64,000 nucleotides of DNA. Origin: Xiphias gladius (lineage: Eukaryota; Chordata; Actinopteri; Istiophoriformes; Xiphiidae). Below are positions 9,176-42,420 of this stretch, in pieces (positions within the stretch are counted from its first letter, which is position 1; each line of letters begins with the position of its first letter). The stretch lies in contig NC_053414.1 in the NCBI RefSeq assembly GCF_016859285.1, positions 29,188,005 to 29,252,004 on the forward strand. The letters run 5' to 3'. Below the pieces are notes generated by a model. The model was not told the origin of the DNA and searched no databases. It saw only the letters and a list, made by a program, of their open reading frames with translations. Made by a program: the position numbers and the translations under genes.

Positions 9176-9949
9176 TTTCCAATTCATTTTGAACATTTTG
9201 AGCACTCAGTCACGGCATTCAGCTGACCAGTGGTGTAACTACATCACTTAGCCAGACAGTCATGGACATTTGTGTTTACATGGCTGGCCCCTGCTGGTTC
9301 AGTTCAGCCAAAAAGTGACTTCAGCAAACTTACCCCTCCCCTTTTCCAGCCCCTGACCCCTTGTAGTCATTTTCATATAGTCCCTTAGTCTGGAGAAGGC
9401 TGATGGAAAAGATGCATGTAAAGAATCAGATCGTCTGGCTCACCTTATTGGTAGCTGTTGGTAAGATCTACAAAAATATTCATCTACGAAAGTAAATAAA
9501 CAGTATAAGGATACTTTATGTGTGAAGGCTGTAATCTTGAGGAATGATATCCATGTGCCAAGATGTTTTGCAGGTCTTTTGTTGTATCTTTTGTCTTTCA
9601 GTCTGCCATTTTTATCTATTCATTTAACACAATACTTATCACTCACCAATTTTCGTGTAATTTGCTTTGTTAAAATGGAATTTGCTAAGCCTATATAAAA
9701 AACACAAGGTCAAAGTATGATGAGACAGGGCAGTTTAATGAGAGCCCTGACATCTTATGGTTTAGTCCAGATGGCGTTGAGTCTTCCTTGTGCTACTCGG
9801 AGTATTTGCTTCAAGTCACATTATCTAGCATAACATTTTGCAATAACTAAAGGCAAGGTGGATCAATCTACAAAGAAAACAGAGTGTGGGTTTTCAAATT
9901 CTGGTAATGAACAAGGTTGACAAGAGTTCAGCCAAATCTCTGATCCAGG

Positions 9950-11262
9950 GACAGCTGCAACAAACCCTCTCTGCCCAATTAGTTCCTCAAACTAAATAAA
10001 AAACAAATAAGACTCACCTGTGTTAATTTTCAGTGTTCACATGAGCTGAAATAACCAATAAATGAAGATTTTACTGCATAAAAAGGGGCAGATTGTTCCA
10101 AGGGCGAAGACGAGAGCTGTCTGAGAGCATCAGAAATGTTATTAAAAAAACTTAACAATTCCAAAGCTTACAAGGCAATCACCAAAGATCTTGAGTCCCC
10201 TGTTTCAGCAGTTCATAATGTTATCAAGAAGTTTCACAGTCATAAAATTGTTGAGATGCTTCCAAGATGTGGTGCTAAGAAGAAAATCAATGAGAGAAGT
10301 CTGTGAAGGTGGATGCGGAATGTGGAAAAAACCCCACACAAGAAATCTAAAGAGCTTCAGGCTGACCTGGAGCAATCTGGAGTGGTGGTTTCAGCCTGTA
10401 CCATAAGTCACACACTAAACCAAGCAGGGCTCCATGGACGAAGGCCAAGGAGGACAATTCAATTGGAAGAAAGGCAAAAAAAGAAAAGACGCATGTTTTG
10501 ACATTTCATAGATAATTCACAATCTTTCTGGGATAATGGACTATGGACAGATGGAACCAAAGTAGAGCTCTTTGGGAATGCAGTGCATCAGTTTATTCAT
10601 TGGTGATGAAATGAAGCCCATAAGGAAAAGAACACCCTACCTACAGTAAAACATGGTGGAGTTTCTATCATGCTGTGGGGCCGCTTTGTTGCCTCTGGTA
10701 CTGGAGGAACTGAATGTATCAAAGGAATGATTAAATCAGGAGATTACCAAGGCATTTAAGAGCTAAATGTGTTACCGAGTGTCATGAAAACTAGGTTTGA
10801 GGCGAAGGTCTGGGGTCTTTCAGCCGGACAACGACCCAAAGACCACATCCAGCAATGCAAAAGAATGGTTGAAAAGCAAAGGATGGACTGTTTTAAATTG
10901 GCCAGCAATGGGCCCTGACCTAAATCCCATTGAAAACCTTTGGAGGGAGCTGAAATCTGCCATTGCCAAAAATAACTTCTCCAAACTTAAGAGAGCTTGA
11001 ATGCATGGCAATGGAAGAGTAGCAGAAACTACCAGCAGACAGACGCAATAAACTTCTAGATGGCTACAAAATAGACGCTGTAATTTTTGCCAAATATGAA
11101 GTGAAGGCTGCCAATAATTGTGTCTTATGTAGGTTTTGTCTTTTTATTTTATTTTCTTCAGTAACCTTGGACATTTTATTAAAATATTTGGATTATACAA
11201 AAGATAATCTAAATTCTCTACTTAAAATTCAGGGGTGCCAATACTTTCAACCAAGACTGCAA
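9950..11262 (+). mobile_element. Tc1-like DNA transposon, degraded, in intron 1 of integrin copy 2
   Basis: Plus-strand pieces of a Tc1/mariner transposase lie in order. A helix-turn-helix region is at about 10110-10300 (ESIRNVIKKLNNSKAYKAI in translation). Then come HGRRPRRT at 10430, LWTDGTKVELFGN at 10540 (first catalytic Asp), [12 protein letters not shown] at 10650, and the frame at 10797-11000 with DNDPKTTS and LNPIENLW, the second Asp and final Glu of the DD34E triad. Stops and frame changes interrupt it, so it is inactive. The right end shows 'caggggtgccaatactttcaaccaagactg' type sequence at about 11231-11262, as in Tc1 termini. I could not find the matching left terminus, so the left boundary is approximate. 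Confidence 0.8.
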
Positions 11263-11339
11263 AAACTAATGTCAGAATTTATGGGCTGGAATACGGACTG
11301 GAGAGGGTTGATTGAAATTATTAAATGAGTTGATATCTT

Positions 11340-11860: not shown

Positions 11861-13482
11861 ACAGGGCTCACACAGATGTAGAGAAAAATCTCTCACTGGG
11901 GTTGGAAGAGGCTTGGGGTAGGTTGTTGCAACCGGTGTTAGCAAGGGCAGAGTATTCCTCTTTTCCCACCAATAACACTGCAGGCTCTACTGACATTGGG
12001 ATGGAAGGGACTACTTTGTAGAGTTGTATGTCTTGATCAACAAGCCCACTGAGAGACAACGTAGTCTGCTGCATGGTGACCCTCAGGACTATGTCATTAG
12101 CAAACAACTCAACATGAATATCTCCTTCTCTTTTTTCTCATTCCTTTGGTTCATCTGTGCCACAATGCTTTTCTGACCCATCCTCCTGTGTTCCTGCTGC
12201 TTTGGTTGCTTCATCTGCCTATTTCAAGTGGTATCAGGTGGCACCACTCTCCATCTTTCCTTTGATCCTGTGTTCCAGCGCTTTTGCCTATAGTACAAAG
12301 GTCTGGATTGCATCCTCCTGGTAACAGCTGAAGATATTCTGTCAAACTTTCTCTTTAATGCTTGGATGATGCATCTTCCTGCACCGTAAAATGGCCTTTA
12401 CGTTCGATGAGGATTGGGAAGATTTGACCAGATGAGGTGGTTTACTCAATTGACACACACAAGGTGGATGTGTATATCAGACACATGAGCTGTACTAACT
12501 CTGTCTCAGCCTTTTGAAAGTCCTGACCCTTTAGTCACCCCAGTTTGTCCTTTCCCATATGTCTCCTTAGTCTTGGATCCATCAGTGCTGCGTGGATTGC
12601 CCGGAATTGCTCCAGGGACCTTTGTACCATAAGGAAGAATGAATCCCACATCAAGTATCTGGGTGTGCTCAAGAAGGCCTGGAACCAAACAAGAAAAATA
12701 AAAATAAATTGATCACATCATGATTTAAGTGAACTATAAATATTATCAAAAAGGGAACTGGGAGTTTAATATGTGCTTTAATAGATTAAAAACACTTCTC
12801 ACCTAGGAGCTATGGCTTTTCTTTCAGTATTGATTCATCCTATCCATCTGTAAATGGGATAGGTCTCTTGTGCTGTGATGTTTATTGTATGAGCAAAGCA
12901 TCCAATTTTCAAGAGTTTCTTGATGGCCATATCCATATTTGCAGAATTATCAGTTGAGTCTACTACAATCTTCCCAATCTCTGTACCACAATTGCCAAGA
13001 ATTTTTTTTAAGGACTTTCTGTTTCACACTGCCCTGGCTAAGGTAGTGTGCTGTAACTGTTAGGTGGTGATCCTGGTATAAGCTGGTCCACCCATCACTT
13101 GCTGTAGCTAACTTCGGCACATTTTACAGAGCCGAGATAACATTGCTTTTTCCATTATTATACTTGGAAGGAATTAGAATGTGTGAGAACATTCCTGCAG
13201 GGTGGGGTATATTGAAGATTGACAGCCTTAACCAGCTCCCTAGAATGAAAAATAGGTGATAATAGATTGATAATCATTGTAAATCATACATTATAATAAT
13301 AAACTTTTCTGTAATATGAGGACTAATTGTCAGCAGAGTGGTTCGTCTTGACTCTTTATCTAAACCCCTTAGACTCCACAGTTAGGAAATGCTGCAGGCC
13401 TATAACAATAAACCTCTGTCTTGCTGCGAGCATGCAGGGATTTACTGCTTGGTAGACACCACTGGCAGAGGGATTAGGGACT

Positions 13483-13519
13483 GGCTGGGGAATGGTGGAA
13501 GCCATCTCAGCCTGAAAGT
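13483..13519 (+). repeat. Left copy of 37-bp direct repeat flanking the inserted integrin patchwork
   Basis: Reads ggctggggaatggtggaagc and onwards. The right copy is at 14323-14359 with one difference. It is far longer than a transposon target-site duplication; it looks like a duplicated stretch of the host hAT element made during insertion. Confidence 0.85.
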
Positions 13520-14322
13520 GTAGTGAACTGTAGAAATACAGGTGAGTGATAAATTAAAGGACAAACACTCCCAATTCACTGTAAGAAAATCACAAAGCTC
13601 AATCAGCTGCATTTAATAGGAAATACACTTTCTCTGTGACATTGCTTCAAAATTCTGAACCAAGGTAAAACACATTTAAAGACTGTAAATTTCTCCAACT
13701 CAATGGTTATAATATTTTGTTCTTTATTTGATGGATCAGGAGTATGACGAAAGGCGAGTTCACAAAAATTTGTTGAATTATACAGTATAGAAATCATTTT
13801 ATATAAATACTGTTTTTTCCCCAGTTCGCAGCAGTTCAGTTCTCCTCAAATCACAAGAAGGTTTTTGACTTCAATGACTATCAAATTATGAGCATCTTAT
13901 TTGTTGAAGTAATACGGTAAATGTTCATTTATTCATATTCATAATTAACTTTTGTCATTGGGGTAAGCTGTGATGTGATATAATATGTCTCATTATTCTG
14001 TCTCATTTTCCCAATAGATAACATTTGTTGATTAAATTATTAATCATCAATTCATGGACCTGTTTTAATTTCAAGCAGCATTCTGGTTTCAGGTCAAGTT
14101 GCTACGCTGGATAAATTTATGGCCATTGCCTCACAACCGGCAGACAAATATGTCTTCAAAATCGAGGACTATAACGGACTCACAGGAATACTGGAAAACT
14201 TTCAAAAAAAGATCTTAAAAATGGAAGGTGAAGTTCAATTGTTTCTTTTTCTTTCTTTGTGCAAAACTGTTGTTACAGAAATCAAGAAAAAACATGATTG
14301 TCTCATATTTAGGCTCCAGTTG
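13520..14322 (+). other. Patchwork copy of the I-domain region inserted into the hAT element
   Basis: About 785 bases (13531-14313) copy seven collinear pieces of 16625-18261, in the same orientation and nearly identical within pieces. Donor blocks: 16625-16822, 16936-16982, 17076-17193, 17376-17430, 17619-17723, 17759-17779 and 18012-18261. The six missing parts are about 113, 93, 182, 188, 35 and 232 bases. The pieces carry parts of I-domain exons, including an acceptor plus the start of the exon at 17134 and almost all of the exon at 18038 with both splice sites. One A is lost near 14095, which shifts that exon's frame. The insert is flanked by a direct repeat at 13483-13519 and 14323-14359 (36 of 37 identical). 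Confidence 0.85.
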
Positions 14323-14359
14323 GGCTAGGGAATGGTGGAAGCCATCTCAGCCTGAAAGT
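14323..14359 (+). repeat. Right copy of 37-bp direct repeat flanking the inserted integrin patchwork
   Basis: Reads ggctagggaatggtggaagc and onwards, matching 13483-13519 at 36 of 37 positions. The sequence after it resumes the hAT element. Confidence 0.85.
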
Positions 14360-15345: not shown

Positions 15346-18300
15346 TCAGCCTTTGTGTCTTTGGCTTTCAACATTGATACGACAACCCCCAACATCTCTA
15401 CAGATATCTCTAGAGACAAAGTGCTTAATTTCATGTTTTGCAGGAACGAAGGGTAGGTACTGTTTTTTCTGTTCCAAATTAATTACTGGTAATTGCTAGA
15501 CTCCTCTATTATTACTCATATCATTAAACTGTTGTTGTTGATTATTTTGTTAAGTTTAGTAGAAACTAAATTTACCACTAAGTAAGAAAGCAAGCAAAAA
15601 GGTTAAGACAAACCCTTTCTGCAGTAAAGGAAAAATGAAAAGCAAGTAGCTTCGGTTCTCTTGACCTGGGACTCACTTGGTTGTTGTCCATGAGCTGTGA
15701 CTATCTAATTTGCATGTTGACATCCAATCACAATCCAGGCAGAGTCGAAATAACAAGAACACTTACCTATATCAGGCCTAAATGCATAGACCTGTGATCA
15801 GATGTTGTCAGAATACAAATTGCATATTCATACCAGGGGCCAGATGTACTGTAAAAAACTTGCTGTAGATTCACAACTAAAACTCTGTATATGCAAAATG
15901 ACAGAAATATGAACAGCCATCCTCTGTTAGATTTAAAAGGCCATGCATTCAGATGGTTCTTTTTTCAAAATGTCATTTGTTGTGGAACTGGGTACACGTG
16001 CACAAGCCCACTTCCCAATGAATGAATTTAGAAACACTCTTAATCACACACTTGCATATCACTACAGTGTGCGTGCAGTTATACAAATTGTGTTACAATC
16101 AGCAATGTTTTCCAACACCACAGCAGCCATCATTACGTGAGGTTGTGGTTTTTTATAGTGCCTAGGCTACTGACTCATCATATGTACTTGTAAACCATCA
16201 GTGGCAGCGAAAATTGAAATCATTATTAAATCTCAGAAAAATGATCAATTATTAATTTATAGCAGTCATATTGAATTAGACTTTACAATGTGCATCACAA
16301 TTGAGGATAAACTGCAAAGATCATTAACTGCCTCAAAAATGCCATATGCATAGTTTCTCTCTGTTTGCACTGCTTATACATCTGGGCACTTGTATAAATG
16401 GGGCTTTGAAATTACTATTATTATACTGTAGTTATTGACCTCATCCACAGGATACTTGTGACGGAACCCCAGCAGCTCAACAGATCTCAAGAAACATGCC
16501 TGTATGATCTAAACCAAACCCACCAGTGCCACGTTATTCCAGGTACATACATATATTTTTTGAAATAAATATGACACGATTAATCAAAACATTAAAACAA
16601 AAAAAAACTAAAAATTTCCAACAATGTAGAAATTCAGGTGAGTGATAAATTAAAGGACAAACACACTCCCAATTCACTGTATGAAAATCACAAAGATCAA
16701 TCAGCTGCATTTAATAGGAAATACTCTTTCTCTGTGACATTGCTTCAAAATTCTGAACCAAGGTAAAACACATTTAAAGACTGTAAATTTCTCCAACTCA
16801 ATGGTTATAATATTTTGTTCTTTTTGCATTAAAATATTAACCTTAATGTTTTTTTCCTGCAAAATATTTCTTTCTAAAATTTCACTCCATATATTTTTTT
16901 CAGAATGCACAAAAAAGACAGTGGACCTTGTCTTTCTATTTGATGGATCAGGGAGTATGACCGAAGACGAGTTCACAAAAAATAAAGATTTCATAGTGGA
17001 TATAATGAACAGCCTTAAGAACACTTCAATCAAGGTCAGTGCACCACTGAAACATGAAAGCATTCATAGTTTTTATTTGTTGAATTATACAGTATAGAAA
17101 TCATTTTATATAAATACTGTTTTTTTTCCCCAGTTCGCAGCAGTTCAGTTCTCCTCAAATCACAGGAAGGTTTTTGACTTCAATGACTATCAAGCTGGTA
17201 GTGCTCTTGATCGACTCCACAAAGAACCCCACATGAAGTCTCTCACCAACACACACAGAGCCCTCAAATTTGTGTTGTAAGTTTGGCTACATTATACATA
17301 CAGACCTAAAAGTCTTGTACCAGTTGTTTAAGAAATAACTCTCAATAACAAGAATTGACACAGTACCACAGTAAGATTATGAGCATCTTATTTGTTGAAG
17401 TAATACGGTAAATGTTCATTTATTCATATTTATCGATGAAGTTTTGTTTATTCTGAATATGACAAATGCTACTTTTACATTTGTTTCAGGGATAATATCT
17501 TGGAAAACCCAGTTGCAGGCGCCTCTCCTGATGCAACTAAAGTTCTGGTGCTAATCACAGATGGAGATCCCAGTGATACCGACAGAGATGAGATTATTAA
17601 AAGATATGATAAGAAAAACATAATTCGCTTTGTCATTGGGGTAAGCTGTGATGTGATATAATATGTCTCATTATTCTGTCTCATTTTCCCACTAGATAAC
17701 ATTTGTTGATTAAATTATTAATCCAGTTAAAACAATGACATGTGGTATACCTCAGGGATCAATTCATGGACCTGTTTTGTCCACTGCTATGTGGATGATA
17801 GAAAGTCTGATTTCTCAGAAAAAAACATTGGTTCAAACTTTTTTTACCAGCTTGGAAAGAATTTAAATATTTTATCTTTAAGTTGTACTCTAACAATCAT
17901 GGCCAAGCTCAGCCTTAAATTTTGAAACTTTTATTGATTCCAGTTTTGAGTCCAATATTGAGCAAAACTGTGTTGTTTGTCTTTCTGACATCAGACTTGG
18001 AAGTGCTTCATAATTTCAAGCAGCATTCTGGTTTCAGGTCAAAGTTGCTACGCTGGATAAATTTATGGCCATTGCCTCACAACCGGCAGACAAATATGTC
18101 TTCAAAATCGAGGACTATAACGGACTCACAGGAATACTGGAAAACTTTCAAAAAAAGATCTTAAAAATGGAAGGTGAAGTTCAATTGTTTCTTTTTCTTT
18201 CTTTGTGCAAAACTGTTGTTACAGAAATCAAGAAAAAACATGATTGTCTCATATTTAGGCTCAATTTTGGCTCGGGCAGGAGACATAAATAATGAAATGT

Positions 18301-18436
18301 CTCAGAGTGGACACAGAGTAGGCACATTCAAAATCAATCAAAATCTACATCTTTAACCCAGAAAAATACTACATCATCACAGGCCTTTCTAACTATTCAT
18401 ACATATAGGTGCAGATAAACAGTATCTTTAGACAGT

Positions 18437-18838
18437 GTTTGATCACGTTCATAAAAAGTATGAATTAAGTTAGGGTACATAATGCACAACACCTTTGTTG
18501 GGCCATTATGTACTACTTATCTGCCATGGCATGAGTGAAGTATTCACCTATACCGCGCAATATCTCGGAGTCTTAACTGTGTTGAAAACCATGCACCCTG
18601 ACAAACTGCTCAAATGGCACAATCTGTTCACATTGGAACACACTGAAAAAAGTGTGTTATTACAACTCCCGTTGGAAGCTCGAATAGTCTCTGTGCTCTC
18701 ACCAGACTTGAATACTTCTGTTAACAGGATACCTTGATCTTGGGTTCAGTGGGATCAAAAGGCTGGCAGGGCTCTCTCCAAGAGATCAATGAACAAAAAG
18801 ACACACAAATGTTTGATCACGTTCATAAAAAGTATGAA
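18437..18838 (+). repeat. Exact 28-bp direct repeat pair around the broken W3 exon
   Basis: The 28 bases at 18437-18464 (gtttgatcacgttcataaaa plus 8 more) recur exactly at 18811-18838, immediately after the second half of the W3 exon. They bracket the unrelated DNA that separates the two exon halves, pointing to a local rearrangement rather than a normal intron. Confidence 0.85.
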
Positions 18839-19193
18839 CAGTATAACAACATTTTCATTCATTCATTCATTCATTCATTCATTTGTTTTTAGAGTCAAAT
18901 GGAACTAAGAAATCAGTGGGTGGAACCAGTAAAGGGTTAACATGCTAATGCATGTCATATTTAGCACTTTAACATGGTGACAACATGGTTTCTGTTTATT
19001 TGAAGTCTTTGGTTTTTGGATATCTCTCTGCTGCTTCACTGGACCAACCAGCCCCAATCAAAGAAGTCTGACTGCAGAAAGTCAGACTGGGCAGTTGATC
19101 TGTTCACTCCCAGTATAACTACCATTGGTAGCTTCACTCTTCTCCGTGCTCTCACCAGACTTGCATATTTCTGTTAACTGGATACCTTGATCC
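18620..19193 (+). repeat. Diverged direct repeat pair, about 100 bp, around the W3 exon
   Basis: 18620-18740 and 19098-19193 share blocks including gctctcaccagacttg and ataccttgatc at an offset near 453 bases. The first copy runs directly into the second half of the W3 exon (DTLILGSVG). The second copy ends a few bases before the W4 exon acceptor at 19204. Confidence 0.7.
18853..18883 (+). repeat. Microsatellite (ATTC)n
   Basis: About seven perfect attc units in the region between integrin W3 and W4 exons. Confidence 0.95.
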
Positions 19194-19879
19194 TGTCACT
19201 GTAGGATACACTACTGCTATTGGAGAGAAGAATAACGCTCCTCTATACTTCATGGGTGCACCAAGATTTAAGCACACAGGACAGGTCATACTTTTCAAAG
19301 ACAATGGTAAAAACTGGACTGCAGCCCAGAGACTAAATGGAGACCAGGTTGGTAGCTGTCTTGAGAAAGTTTTTAACTGCTTTATTAGGCATATTTTGAA
19401 CATAAATGACTTCATGTACTTGAATGGCTTAGATTGTTTGAAATGCGAAGAACGCCTTTACGAGTAAAGTTAGGATCCTAACTTTACTTGTAAAATTCTT
19501 GAAGATCCTAAATATATGTTTGATTCTTTATTGTTTAATGCAAAAAAAACCAATGAAAAAACTATAAACAAAGAGACCAAGAAAAACACAACAGTAGCAG
19601 ACTAGTACATAGCACTGGTACACACCAGTCCTGCTGGCCCACAATGTCTAAAAAGTAGTGTGCACCGTTTTGGCTCCATTGTGAGAATTTAACAGGTTTA
19701 TTCTGTATTTTAAATTCATTCTTATTTAAACAGGAAAATTTTGAATAACTTTTGTCAACTTTGGTAAAAGTTTGGATATTATATCGTATGGAAAGGAGAT
19801 GATGTATTAGTAAGCCAAATTTCCTCTTAGCTGTTTTCACTGGAATACCCAAAGCCCAAGTTTTCCTTTTTTAAGTCAG

Positions 19880-20015: not shown

Positions 20016-23000
20016 GTGAACTGAGTTTTCTTCATTTTTAAGCCGAGCAACTCTAGAGACTGGATTCAGCCATGTGTGTAATGGGAAAAAGAGAAAGAAA
20101 AAGAAAAATGAAAATAAAAACACCAGGAATACCACTTGATATCTGGCAGATTATTCCTTGAAATCTGAAACTGTGGGGATATTATAGGTGTGGCCACTTT
20201 ATTAATTTAGGAGTATTAATGCTGATTTACACTAGGTAACTTTACACGCTGAAGTACTTAAAAACCTGTCAAATAGTCTTTACAAACGGGGCATCAACTT
20301 GGTGAGATTTTTAAAAAAGAAATTAAAATGGGATGTACTGTGGATGGTGACTGGTTCATGATCTGTGCAAGTGGCTCTAGAGATAACGCATATAGTAAGG
20401 AGGACATAGAGGAACCCTGATGATAAGGCCTGGAGACAGGAAGTCTTGCTGAAGAAATATTGCTTTTCATGACCAATTCAATTGGATGATCAGAGAGCAC
20501 ATTTTTTTCTGTATAAAATATACATTTTGTACATGTAGGATTTTCAACATGATTAGGACAGTGTTTGTTTGGGGTGGGTTTTTTTTCAAAATTAATGATT
20601 TAAGTCTTCATTTGTCCACACATTTTCAGATTGGTTCCTACTTTGGTGCGGAGCTGTGCGCAGTAGATATCAACTCAGATGGTAACACAGACTTCCTGCT
20701 GGTGGGAGCTCCACTGTTTTACCAGCCTCAGGAGAAGAGAGAAGGCCAGATCTATGTCTACACACTGACTGATGAGGTGGGGGACGTGATAAAGCCTCAG
20801 ATTCAGTGTGACACTGCCTAAACTTTCGTGGGGCAACTGGGAGAAAATGAATGCAGTTCTTTTCCTAATCAATTAACTTACGTTCTTAGATGCGACTGGA
20901 AAGTGAACTGAATGTGACAGCGCCATCCATGGGTAGATTTGGCAACACCATATCCAGCCTTGCAGATCTGAACGGAGATGGACTTCGAGACGTTGCTGTT
21001 GGAGCCCCCCTTGAGGATGATAACAGGGGGGCTGTATACATTTACCTTGGTGACAGATACAGAGGGATATGCAGCACTTTCAGCCAGGTGAGGCAGAAAA
21101 AACCTGAAATATTCTATAATTTTTCAGAAAAAAATCAGAACTGCAATTCCACTAGATGAGATTACAGTAGCAGATTTCCTGACTGTTCACCATGCAGCTG
21201 GCAAGCAAAAAAGATACATTTCCTCATCAGGATATGACTATCATCAGAGGTTGCAATCTGTAAAACCTATAGAAGAAACATGAATCTTAGCATGGAAAAG
21301 ATAAAACTAAAATTTATAAATACTAGCATTAAATATTAGCTACAGTTCAGTTTTTTTTCGTTTTAATAATGCTGGTATTTACATTCAAACATATGGCCAT
21401 CCACTCTCTAATGAGTACCCTCAAATATGTTTGCAAATCATTCAACTGCCAACTCTCTGTTATTCCAGAGAATCAGGGGAAAGGAAATTGAACCTTGGCT
21501 GAGATTCTTTGGACAGGCCATCCATGGGGACATCGACCTTGAAGAGGACGGACTCCCAGATATTGTGATTGGATCACAGGGCACGGCTGTTGTCTTAAGG
21601 TATTTCTCAAGTATACTGTATATCAATGTACATAAGTAGCATATGTACAAAACAAACTAAAACAGCATCTGTCTCAGACTAATTCAGCTTTGCTAGAACA
21701 CATCGAGACAACTGAAATTGTGGGCTAGTGTTGGGAAGCTTGTTTACCAACATGCTGTAATCAATTTGTAATCAATTTAATCAATGTCTTTCAGGTCCAG
21801 GCCTGTCTTTAAGGTATTGGCACATCTGTCTTTTCAACCTGAGGAGATAAGCACTGAGAAAATTGACTGCCTAGACAACACAGAAGAAAATGTACCCATG
21901 GTTACCTTAACAACTTGCTTTGAAATGGTTGAAACAACAAAGAGCAAAGCAGGTAGGGACCAGAGCCAATAAGGGACTGTGTTAAGTTAAGGGGAGGGGC
22001 CAAGAAATATATTAAAAAGTAACTCGACACCCTATGAAAATCTTGTTTTTGCTGACCTCCAGCGGTTTAATATGTCACCTTGCTGCAGCAATGTATAGGT
22101 GCACTCAAGCAAACCGTGACATAACAAAGCACACTATGTCGGAAACATCCAACCAACGATTACAGCTAAGCACTGCTTTTCAGCCTGGTGTTAAATTACT
22201 CTTTGATAATGCTGGGTAGGGCCTTGCTTTTTTTTTTAATTATATATATACATATATATATAAAATGAAAGATTCAGCTGCCCCTCCCCACCCCAATAAT
22301 CTTCATACAGACCCCATTTGATTCTTTAACAGCTGCCAATGCTGCTGACCAGATCAGTGTTTGTTTCTGTCTCATTTAATCCATTTGGATACTTTTGCAG
22401 GGACAACAGTACCAGGACTGACCATCTCATATACACTTGATGTGGATCCAACGAGACAAAGAGGTTTCTTCAATCCCAACTATAAGGAAGCTAGGAATCT
22501 CACTTCTACTTACACTCTGAGGGATAAAGACAGCTGCTTCAGCTACTCCATCTACATGCCAGTATGGAGATTATTCAGAAGGCTATATTCACCTTCTCCC
22601 TCGATCTTTTTATCAATACTACACATTGAGAGTGGAAGTAAAGTTCTGTAAAGCATTTTAAGTATCCTTGATGCCAGTCCAACATGTCTGCTTTGGTCAT
22701 ATGACCTAAGGGCTCTTTATACCGCAGACTCATCTTGTTTTTCACTTCAAAATGAAGAAATGTATAGACTTTACTTTGAATTTGGATCTCTTCTTGGCCC
22801 TCAAGTTAATATTTGGGGCAAAAATAATTAAGTGCTGATGATTTCCATTTCGAAAGTATGGCCATCTGCTGTCCTTGGTCTTTTTGAAAAGTACAAATCC
22901 TGACCAACCTACCTGCCCATGTAGCAACAACCTTTCTGTCGCACTAGAAGAGATGTAAAACTAGAATTGTGACCTAAAATTCAGCCTCTTCTTCAAAATA

Positions 23001-35392: not shown

Positions 35393-35525
35393 TCATTTGT
35401 GCTGCTCTAAGAATTAAAAACAACAACATTTTCTAAAATCAAAAAGCAACAATGTCCCATTTACTCTGGATAATCCACAGACCTCACTGGGAACAGTTTT
35501 TTCTTTGGTAAAACAGTCAAAATAT
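35393..35525 (+). repeat. Left copy of a direct repeat bracketing the proline-rich locus
   Basis: Contains 'actctggataatccacagac' followed by a ctgggaacagttttt block. The same order of blocks recurs at 42288-42420 in the same orientation with moderate divergence. Confidence 0.8.
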
Positions 35526-35599
35526 AACAGAACAAAACCAATAAAACTCTAAATAAGACAAAAAATTTATTTATTTAAAATTTTACATAATATTTTTAG

Positions 35600-38500
35600 T
35601 GTCTAGTTGTACATGAACCTCTCTCAAACCATAGAGTCGGAGGCTGAGTGTTGAAGGAGCAGGTGGGGTCTGGTAAAGAGGCTGGCTTATATGTGGTTTT
35701 AGATGGTCAGCAGGGGTTTTATCTGACATCTTCGGCAGATGTTTGAGCTTTCAGACAACAGCTGGAGGTGGAGGCTGAGGTTACAGGAAGGCTAATGGAA
35801 GGCTTCAATGGGAGGGTGGGGTTATATCTTGGAAGGCGATATAACCGAGGCTGGAGCCTGAGCTGAGAGCATAAACTTGCATGCCGACTCTTGGGGGGGG
35901 GCTTGTTGGCTACAGCCTCACGTAGACTGTGGCTGTAGATGCTGGCAGACACTACAGGTGGTGCTGGTAGAAGCTGCAGGTTTCAGATGAGGATGGGGCA
36001 ACTGGTTGTCAGACGCTGTAGGCAGATGTTCAAGTTGCAGTTTGCTGCTTGAGGCTGCGGGCGGAGGCGAGAGGCTGGAGATGGAGTTGGCTGTCAGATG
36101 GTAATGGCAGCAAATGAGGCTGTGCCCGACCCTGGAAAACGTTGATGGAAAAGTGGGGCCATTGCCAAATACTTGAGAGTTTGCACATGGCAAAATAGGA
36201 CTGATGGATGTTGAAATGAGAATGTTTGGTTTTGTCTGTTTTCGAGGTCGTGTGCAGCCAGCAAAGGCTGAAGGTGGAGGTAAGAGCGACCAAAACACTG
36301 AGAATTAAGTAATATTTTAAAATGTAGACCCTATCTCAGATCAATTGTTGCACAGCATTCATACGTTCTTATATGAATGTGTTGTTCATCCTGTATTTGC
36401 AAAAAATTGTCCTTGATGCATGATCAGTGTTAACAATTTATTTTACAAAACAGTTAGGAAAATTTTAACATGTTTAAATACTTAATTTGAACAAATAAAG
36501 GAATTTTTCGACAAAACTAAATTCTTCATAAATAATTAACCTGTGAGATTACATAGTGAGTTTATCTTTATTTTTATCTCAGTTGGCTGCTGGCTGTTAG
36601 AGACTGCAAAGGGACGCTGGTCCTGGACTTGGCTTTTTGGATCCTGAAGATGCACATGGAGGCTGTGGCTGAGACTGGTGGCTCTAAATAGTCAGAAAAA
36701 GGATTAGGCTGCAGCTGGATGCCAGAGACCACTGTTCATGTCCTATGCTGCACTGTAGCTACGCTGTAACTTTTATTCTGTTGTTTAATGTGTGTATTCT
36801 ATTTTAGCCTATTTTTATCTTGTTTTATTTGACTCTTTTAAATGCTATTTATATGTGACTTTTTAGGTTGCCTTGTGTTTCTTTTATACTTTGGCTTAAT
36901 ACCTGATACCTTATGTAAACCACGTTGAATTGCCTTGTTTAAATCTAATACACAAATAAACTTGACTCGCCTTGCCTTAAAGGGAAGGGCTTGGGCTGCA
37001 ACTTACAGGCAGTAGCTGCAGGTGGAGGCTGAGGATTGCTGCTGTGGCTGGGGAGGCAGGAAGCTGTGGCTAGAGCTGGCTGGAACAGGTGGAGGTTGCG
37101 GCTGCACTGAAACCGAGTTAAACAAATACAATTGCGTCGTTCAAGGTATTCACCCTCCATTTATGTTTTGACTGTGTTTTAAAGATATTCTTGTTGCTGA
37201 ATGTTAGCTCACATGCAGTAGCTGCAGATGGAAGCTAAGGCTGAATGCCAAAGGCTGTATGCAGTGGCTGCGGGTGCAGCAGTCCTTCAGAGGCCTTAGG
37301 CAGAGGCTGGGGATAAGACTGGCAGGAGGAGGAGGCGGCTGGAGCAGAGACCGGTTTGCAAACGTCTCTTTAGCCGGATGCACGTACTGAGGGCCTGAGA
37401 AAACAAAGTTGTAGTCAGCAAAGATCAGCACATACTATAAATGAAACAAGTAAAACCACATTCCTTACACATCCAAGTTTTCCTGTAAACTGTGGTTTAA
37501 AGAGACACTCGTCACTTAATGTCATCTTACTAATTGTCATACTGCAGGTGGAGGATGAGGCTGTAGTTGGGGGCTGAGGGTTGAAGGAGCAGGTGGGGGT
37601 CTGGTAAAGAGGATGGCTGATGAGTTGCTGCAGATTCTTAGCAGAGGTTTCAGGCTGTGAGTGGAGCTGCACTGGTACTGAGGTACTGTGAAAGGCCAGG
37701 TTAAAAGGTTAAAACACAGTTAAACTGTACAATATGCTTGTTATTAAAAACATCAAAAGTCAAATCATGATATTTCAGCAGATTCATTCAGAGGCTGAGG
37801 CTGCAATCGGCCCTCTGTGAGGCTCTAGTTGGAGGGTGGGGCTTTTGCTGGCTTCATCATATATGAAGCTTCAGGTGGAGGCTGAAGCAGAGGCTGGCTG
37901 ACAAAGACTGAAGTTGGATGCTGGTGCTTTGATCCTGAGAAAAGCAAGGTTGTAAAAAACCAACATCACCATATTAGTACAACAAGTAAAATAGTATATT
38001 CAAGGTATCATATTAAACTGTTATAAAATGTCATCTTACGGCAGTAGCTGCAGGTGGAAGTCGAGTCGAGGCCGGCTGTCAGGGGCTGTAGGCACAGACT
38101 GGTGCTGCAATCGGCCCCTGGAAGTTTTAGGTGGAAGGTGGTGCTGTTGCTTGCTTTCCTAAAACTGCTGAAGCACTCAGGCAAAGACTGGGGTGGAACC
38201 TGATGCTGTATGCTAAATATTGGCGGCAGTAGCTGGAAGAGCACCAGAGACTGGCTAAAGGGGCTTTAGGTGAAAGCTGGATCAAGAGATGGATGCTGGA
38301 TCATGGGCACACTGGGTGGTGCTTGTTAGCTACGGCTTCATGTGTAGACTGTAGATGGCTGGAAGACACTACAGGTGGTGCTGGTATCTGCACAGGCAGA
38401 AGCTGCAGGTTTCAGGTGAGGATGGGGCAACTGGTTTTCAGAAGCTATAGGCTGACATTCAAGTTGCAGTCTGCTGCTGGAGGCTGCGAGTGGAGGCGAG

Positions 38501-38900
38501 AGGCTGGAGACGGAGTTGGCTGTCAGATGGTAATGGCAGCAAATGAGGCTGGGCCCGACCCTGGAAGACGTTGATGGAAAAGTGGGGCCATTCCCAAATA
38601 CTTGAAAGTTTGCACATGGCAAAATCAGGACTGATGCATGTTGAAATGAGAAGGTTTGGTTTTGTCTGTTTCTAAGGTCGTGTGTGCAGGCAGCAAAGGC
38701 GGCAGGTGGAGGATGGTGCTTTCTGAAGGCAGAGGCTAGATGCAGCTGGTAGCTGCTGTAGGTGGAGAGTGAGGGGCAGCTTGGTGGTAGAAGCTGCGGT
38801 TGGGTTCTGGATTGTAGGTGTTTGTAAGATGGAGATGGAGGCTCAGGCTGCGTTCAAGTTCTACTCACTACATTGGACTATTTGTGACACTGAATTGGAT
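35600..38900 (-). repeat. Degenerate repeat field rich in GGAGGCTGAGGCTG units, with a duplicated 2-kb module
   Basis: On the minus strand this DNA is C/T/G-rich, and all frames give Pro, Gln, Ser, Ala and Leu runs (for example LQPPPAAS). Loose units of about 20-25 bases recur throughout. Larger modules are duplicated: 36000-36290 matches 38400-38700 closely, and 35635-35690 matches 37570-37625. Many short frames exist but none runs through, and no conserved domain is seen. It lies directly downstream of the proline-rich gene and may be decayed copies of its repetitive exons. A minus-strand AATAAA at about 35566-35573 could be its polyadenylation site. Confidence 0.7.
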
Positions 38901-42287: not shown

Positions 42288-42420
42288 TTTTGATTTGTGC
42301 TGCTCAAAGGATTAAAAACAACAAGATTTGTAAAATTCAAAAGCAACATTTGTCCCAGTTACTCTGGATAATCCACAGACCTCTCTGGGAACAGTTTTTT
42401 TTTTTTGTAAAATAGGCAAG
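42288..42420 (+). repeat. Right copy of a direct repeat bracketing the proline-rich locus
   Basis: Same orientation and block order as 35393-35525, including 'actctggataatccacagac'. The two copies lie about 6.9 kb apart on either side of the proline-rich gene and its repeat field. Confidence 0.8.

What the first reader, a model, noticed from the sequence alone, without database searches (positions are those of the whole stretch)
13483..14359. Seven-piece templated copy of the integrin I-domain region inserted in a hAT element, with a 37-bp flanking duplication
The insert copies seven blocks of 16625-18261 in their original order and orientation, skipping six stretches of 35 to 232 bases. Block junctions sit at short shared sequences (for example ttctt/tatttgatgg, cacaaaaa/tttgttg, gactatcaa/attatg). 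The ends carry a 37-bp duplication of hAT sequence. Near-identity of the blocks with large clean gaps does not fit slow decay of an old tandem duplicate. It fits one repair or replication event with repeated template switching from a donor 3 kb away. The copied exon pieces keep splice signals, so they could be spliced into transcripts of the gene.
Basis: seen in the sequence. Interest (0 to 1): 0.8.

Follow-up and report, generated by a model that had tools for sequence, protein, structure and literature searches.

The report
Patchwork gene-fragment copy inside integrin intron
A stretch in the first intron of an immune-type integrin gene is a real, recent, shortened copy of seven pieces of that gene's own middle, probably left by one error-prone repair of a broken chromosome; it is an unusual scar rather than a new kind of genetic element.

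Summary
Window 13529-14316 (copy C) is seven same-strand, collinear blocks of 16625-18262, the I-domain region of an integrin alpha-L-like gene (B). It skips 114, 94, 182, 188, 34 and 233 bp and lies between two 37-bp direct repeats, in intron 1 of B. In the assembly the DNA searches found three matching loci: C, B and a tandem upstream paralogue A. Diagnostic sites show B was the template: C=B at 10, C=A at 1; none of the six gaps is in A or B. One claim fails: junctions share 0-1 bp, no more than random skips, so classical microhomology-driven template switching is not supported. C has no private substitution in 399 intronic sites, yet carries six large gaps and five 1-2 bp indels at short repeats. 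That argues against slow decay and for one slippage-prone copying event at a staggered break. How synthesis or ligation skipped forward six times without microhomology is not explained. One copied exon keeps both splice sites and would splice in frame between exons 1 and 2; use is unknown. In 294 kb surveyed, no other such chain was found.

The parts
13483..13519 (+). left copy of the 37-bp flanking direct repeat
   Evidence: self-BLAST, 36 of 37 identical to 14323-14359
13520..13528 (+). untemplated or diverged filler between left repeat and first block
   Evidence: no block of the donor covers it; context
13529..13724 (+). block 1, from 16625-16822
13725..13767 (+). block 2, from 16937-16980 (part of I-domain exon E1), with 1-bp deletion and 3 clustered substitutions
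13768..13884 (+). block 3, from 17075-17193 (intron plus start of E2, acceptor kept)
13885..13939 (+). block 4, from 17376-17430 (intron)
   Evidence: 55 of 55 identical
13940..14045 (+). block 5, from 17619-17723 (end of E3, donor kept, and intron)
   Evidence: 13951-14045 also
14046..14065 (+). block 6, from 17758-17777 (intron)
14066..14316 (+). block 7, from 18011-18262 (intron, whole exon E4 with 1-bp deletion, intron)
14317..14322 (+). filler between last block and right repeat
14323..14359 (+). right copy of the 37-bp flanking direct repeat
14093..14227 (+). potential cassette exon E4' (135 nt) with both splice sites, in frame between exons 1 and 2
13825..13962 (+). hybrid E2/E3 pseudo-exon (138 nt), stops in the frame entered from exon 1
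9403..9460 (+). putative coding exon 1 (signal peptide) of gene B
   Evidence: 69% match over 75 bp to C15:29177231-29177305 upstream of paralogue A (E 0.001)
15350..15452 (+). exon 2 of gene B (start of mature integrin alpha chain)
16625..18262 (+). donor: I-domain region of gene B

Best explanation
A break with ends offset by about 37 bases in intron 1 of integrin gene B was closed in one event by filling in both ends (giving the 37-bp repeats) and putting a patch between them. The patch was copied in one direction from the same gene's I-domain region, starting about 3 kb away, by low-fidelity synthesis that slipped at short repeats and jumped forward six times over 34-233 bases, the pieces being joined with almost no shared sequence. 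SHOWN: the seven collinear blocks, B as template, the repeats, blunt junctions, small indels at runs, absence of the gaps in A and B. INFERRED: the staggered break, fill-in, single event, and direction. NOT EXPLAINED: what made each forward jump. Secondary-structure skipping, splicing and microhomology were tested or inspected and do not fit.
For: B is the template: C=B at 10 of the 11 sites where A and B differ (656 sites compared). DNA searches of the 690-Mb assembly with the insert and with the donor matched A, B and C only (the tool scores only its best candidates). C is young: 0 private substitutions in 399 intronic sites; at 16682, 16725 and 17692 C=A and B is the changed one. Against that, C has six large gaps and five 1-2 bp indels, all at short repeats. 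Between A and B over 1538 sites there are, depending on scoring, two or three 1-2 bp indels in one intron spot near 16859-16866; Fisher for 5 in 788 against 2 in 2x1538 is 0.005, against 3 it is 0.011. Large gaps against substitutions: C 6 to 6; A-B 0 to 38 within the copied span (Fisher 6e-5), or 1 to 42 over the whole tract to 18810, counting a 30-bp difference near 18315-18334 (Fisher 2e-4). Break-induced replication greatly raises frameshifts (PMC3039667, abstract start in the listing). Small duplications arise at staggered breaks filled in and end-joined (PMC8355091, passages).
Against: Junction microhomology is absent (0 of 6 with 2 bp or more), whereas 80% of junctions in a published set of MMBIR insertions have 2-12 bp (PMC8421209, passages). 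All six jumps go forward; re-annealing at random would also go back. Private substitutions are not significantly nearer junctions. The six private substitutions all lie in exon pieces, so some may be an older B sequence rather than copying errors. The small-indel contrast first looked stronger (0.00035) because one alignment hid the A-B indels; one search showed them. One of the five C indels (13564) is not polarised. No population or sister-species data.
Confidence: 0.6

Rival explanations
1. A full copy of about 1.64 kb was inserted and then lost six segments by separate end-joining deletions.
For: Collinear order, single orientation and blunt junctions are exactly what ordinary deletions by end joining would leave.
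Against: Six deletions of 34-233 bp with no private intronic substitution in 399 sites; with an assumed 0.05 large deletions per substitution the chance of six is 3e-4, with 0.1 it is 0.01; no deletion of 30 bp or more in the same span between A and B over 38 substitutions (exons of A and B are constrained, and one 30-bp difference lies just downstream).
Confidence: 0.18
2. C is an old, decayed duplicate whose remaining blocks were made young again by gene conversion from B.
For: Ectopic transfer is clearly active here: A and B are 95% alike over 16758-18810 but 68-89% in 7 of 9 other matched stretches. Clusters of private changes in blocks 2 and 5 could be unconverted relics.
Against: Blocks as short as 20, 43 and 55 bp would have to be converted up to the edge of each gap; all 12 inner block edges are identical to B for at least 7 bp. 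Conversion that erased substitutions should also have erased the 1-2 bp indels (inference from mismatch-repair behaviour, recalled).
Confidence: 0.14
3. The same single event, but joined by classical microhomology: microhomology-mediated break-induced replication or polymerase-theta end joining. (Overlaps the best explanation; odds not meant to add up with it.)
For: Nearby template, multiple pieces, small errors.
Against: Shared bases 1,1,0,0,0,1; probability of 0 of 6 junctions with 2 bp or more is 6e-5 at the published 80%, and of at most 3 of 6 with 1 bp or more is 0.02 at the published 138 of 155.
Confidence: 0.12
4. Assembly artefact.
For: Five indels at runs are typical of long-read consensus errors (recalled).
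Against: Only two or three 1-2 bp indels, in one spot, between A and B over 1538 sites in the same assembly; artefacts do not produce six ordered gaps plus a flanking repeat (inference). No second version of the flank was found in the assembly.
Confidence: 0.06
5. Gene capture by the hAT element (transduplication).
For: hAT-like peptides nearby.
Against: The element is broken and its flank was found only here; no Pfam hit; flanking repeat is 37 bp, whereas hAT target duplications are 8 bp (recalled).
Confidence: 0.02

Closest known systems
Patch-type double-strand break repair with flanking duplication (Vaughn and Bennetzen 2014, not held, seen only as a reference; PMC8355091, passages)
   Same: Target duplicated; in the 2014 paper, by its title, natural insertions form tandem duplications by patch-mediated repair.
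   Different: The patch here is about 790 bp, copied discontinuously from one donor in seven ordered pieces.
Templated sequence insertion polymorphisms of humans (PMC5110952, passages)
   Same: A template elsewhere is copied into a new site; class 1 has a target duplication, class 2 has end-joining features.
   Different: No poly(A), so not class 1; a 37-bp duplication, so not class 2; donor only about 3 kb away; six internal skips.
MMBIR templated insertions (PMC8421209, passages) and chromoanasynthesis (PMC13065848, passages)
   Same: Several templated pieces in one insertion. PMC13065848 reports some blunt junctions (11.4% and 15.8% in two sets).
   Different: No microhomology of 2 bp or more at any of six inner junctions; all pieces forward and collinear.

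Membership tests
MMBIR templated insertion | inserted sequence templated from nearby DNA | tested here: met
MMBIR templated insertion | microhomology (typically 2-12 bp) at switch points | tested here: not met
   0 of 6 junctions with 2 bp or more; total 3 versus 4.7 at random
MMBIR templated insertion | raised mutation near switch points (recalled) | tested here: inconclusive
   5 of 11 substitutions within 20 bp, p 0.16
Class 1 TSIP (LINE-mediated) | target-site duplication of at least 5 bp | tested here: met
   37 bp, one mismatch
Class 1 TSIP (LINE-mediated) | poly(A) tract at one end | tested here: not met
   sequence of both ends
Class 2 TSIP (break patch) | no target duplication | tested here: not met
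   37-bp duplication
Staggered-break patch repair | target repeat on both sides of the added DNA | tested here: met
Staggered-break patch repair | dependence on end-joining and fill-in enzymes | not testable with these tools
   needs experiments
hAT gene capture | fragment lies between element ends and is mobile in several copies | tested here: not met
   flank found only here in the assembly; element ends were not looked for
Retrocopy | introns removed at splice sites, poly(A) | tested here: not met
   introns retained; none of the 6 gaps is bounded by GT..AG; the third reads GC..AG

The most novel reading that the evidence does not exclude
The insert records a repair mode in which successive short fragments, primed along one template strand, are joined end to end without filling the gaps between them. 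This would give an ordered, one-directional, microhomology-free shorthand copy of the donor, at a break whose ends were filled in to leave the 37-bp repeats. Such shorthand copies could then donate ready-made in-frame cassette exons, here E4', to the gene they came from.
Probability: 0.12. Interest if true: 0.75.

Novelty: new variant of a known kind. Interest (0 to 1): 0.42.

Why it matters
Templated insertions are, as far as I recall, known mostly from cancers, cultured cells and short germline events. This is a germline scar long enough, and with a tandem outgroup gene close enough, to separate template, errors and later change. It shows several ordered skips without microhomology, which the usual model does not predict. 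It also keeps a record of the donor: at sites where C=A and B differs it preserves B's earlier state, and its six exonic private sites may preserve B before transfer from A. One copied exon is ready to splice in frame.

Tried and rejected
Microhomology at junctions: no more than random. Hairpin skipping: stems across gaps not unusual in 5 of 6 gaps, one at 0.037; distance in sampled RNA folds of either strand not short (combined p 0.91 and 0.84). Splicing of a pre-mRNA before copying: none of 6 gaps is GT..AG, one is GC..AG. Clustering of small changes at junctions: not significant. Pfam search of the putative hAT region: nothing. Relatives in viral contigs: no exact match of the 32-base repeat core; 38 pattern matches, none confirmed, for the I-domain. 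No relative genomes of this organism are held, so the polymorphism tests could not be run. Another source paralogue: the protein search found 53 matches with E up to 0.001, 10 of them in A, B or C and the other 43 at 23-33% identity. Survey for similar chains: only this one in 294 kb (word 14, 88% identity or more, forward copies within 20 kb); the sample is small and lies around this locus, so no genome-wide rate is given. Papers: eight searches; I noticed no listed title or abstract start describing a collinear, multi-gap, microhomology-free copy, but I saw only passages of five papers. Mended on re-check: the statement that A and B have no 1-2 bp indel was wrong, and the odds of the best explanation went from 0.62 to 0.60 for it.

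Full report
WHAT IS THERE. The window comes from a 690-Mb assembly, contig C15:29188005-29252004. The donor region 16625-18262 holds four I-domain exons whose translation matches integrin alpha-L I domains best among integrins in the PDB (the overall top hit is a collagen VI alpha 3 chain). A putative signal-peptide exon at 9403-9460 joins in frame to exon 2 at 15350-15452; upstream of paralogue A there is a 69% match to exon 1 (E 0.001) and a 72% match to exon 2. The insert therefore most likely lies in intron 1 of the donor gene, in the gene's own orientation.

THE COPY. Local alignment with cheap gap extension gives seven blocks in order: 13529-13724, 13725-13767, 13768-13884, 13885-13939, 13940-14045, 14046-14065 and 14066-14316. 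Over the 793 aligned bases up to 14322 there are 14 mismatches; three (14317, 14319, 14322) lie past the last matching base, leaving 11. The 37-bp repeats bracket it with 9 bases (left) and 6 bases (right) of filler or diverged repeat.

JUNCTIONS. Shared bases at the six inner junctions are 1, 1, 0, 0, 0 and 1. Twenty thousand sets of random skips of the same lengths in the same donor averaged 4.7 in total against 3 here, and 36% of them had 3 or fewer: not fewer than chance to a significant degree, but no excess. In a published set of MMBIR insertions 80% of junctions had 2-12 bp (PMC8421209, passages); 0 of 6 would then have a probability of 6e-5.

THE TEMPLATE. A DNA search of the assembly with the insert returned 14 matches, all within C, gene B, or a tandem paralogue A at C15:29180373-29182180; a search with the donor returned 8, again A, B and C. 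The tool scores only its best candidates. A and B are 95% alike over 16758-18810 but 68-89% in 7 of 9 other matched stretches of the gene (two, within 20567-21603, are 95-97%), so sequence has passed between them. Of 656 sites comparable in all three, C agrees with B against A at 10, with A against B at 1, and is alone at 6. B is the template. None of the six gaps is present in A or B.

TIMING AND ERRORS. The six private substitutions of C are all in exon pieces; 0 fall in the 399 intronic sites. They also lie inside 16958-17657, where A and B differ at only 4 of 700 sites, so some may be the older sequence of B, later overwritten from A (inference). In the left block C agrees with A against B at 13584 and 13627; 13598 depends on the alignment and 13538 is not polarised. 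So C has changed little by substitution since it was made. It does have five 1-2 bp indels at short repeats: four are private against both A and B, the fifth, at 13564, is not polarised. Between A and B over the same 1538 sites there are a 22-bp and a 7-bp indel and two or three 1-2 bp indels near 16859-16866, depending on scoring (the alignment had hidden these, so the 0.00035 is too strong). With them the contrast is 5 in 788 against 2 or 3 in 2x1538, p 0.005 or 0.011. Per substitution it is 5 to 6 against 2 to 42, p 0.002. The pattern, frameshifts and gaps with few substitutions, is what frameshift-prone repair synthesis would leave and not what age would leave. A crude count of 13 C-private against 1 B-private events gave p 0.002; it took B-private as 1, before raised it to at least 3, so it is overstated.

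MECHANISM. The repeats suggest a break with offset ends, filled in on both sides; fill-in at staggered breaks gives small tandem duplications in mouse and human cells (PMC8355091, passages). The patch is a one-way copy of the donor. Forward jumps are not explained by hairpins, splice sites or microhomology. I hold the single-event reading at 0.60 (0.62), with full copy plus later deletions (0.18) and conversion of an old duplicate (0.14) as the main rivals; the classical MMBIR form overlaps the first and fails its junction test.

POSSIBLE USE. The copied exon E4' (14093-14227) is 135 nt because of its 1-bp deletion against B, and keeps both splice sites. Spliced between exons 1 and 2 it stays in frame, in the native I-domain reading frame, adding 45 residues after the signal peptide. 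Chance alone gives such a length fit about one time in three. The hybrid E2/E3 piece (13825-13962) would bring stops. No RNA data were available.

COMPARISON. It works like patch repair of a staggered break. It is not a class 1 or class 2 TSIP by the published definitions (PMC5110952, passages), not a retrocopy and not shown to be hAT capture. I call it a new variant of a known kind. In 294 kb around the locus no other chain of two or more such blocks was found.

Noticed in passing
window 18436-18464 and 18810-18838; 19114-19195: The A-like tract in B (16758-18810; 18640-18810 is 100% identical to A) ends with a 29-bp exact copy of 18436-18464, 1 bp shared at the switch (by eye). B's older version (83%) of 18661-18742 survives at 19114-19195, right before exon 19193-19387; A has a single copy in the 1.3 kb examined. 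The A-to-B transfer seems to have ended by a backward jump and a non-homologous join: a second repair scar in the same gene.
   Followed up: partly
window 16663-16806 versus C15:29180373-29180700: Paralogue A seems to have an exon here (reads like LGLSIAADSTGSQFTV ... CYKLTDHLQQISSFTPAFQ) that is degenerate in B. In B the preceding exon (about 16452-16543) would join E1 in phase without it, so part of the beta-propeller seems to be lost (exon reading by eye).
   Followed up: partly
window 16958-17657: A and B differ at only 4 of 700 sites here, against 21 of 200 just upstream, pointing to a recent transfer over the I-domain exons.
   Followed up: partly
window 18311-18334: A has about 30 bp more than B in a messy indel spot just downstream of the copied span.
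   Followed up: no
window 35395-38712 and 42293-42400: Several local direct repeats of 38-315 bp at 90-95% identity with unequal offsets, in a stretch of proline- and serine-rich minus-strand frames.
   Followed up: no
window 12700-13530 (C15:29200704-29201534): The hAT-like flank of the insert was found only here in the assembly, and no second haplotype of the site came up.
   Followed up: yes
window 10000-11320: Remnant that looks like a Tc1/mariner transposon in intron 1 of gene B (recognised by eye).
   Followed up: no
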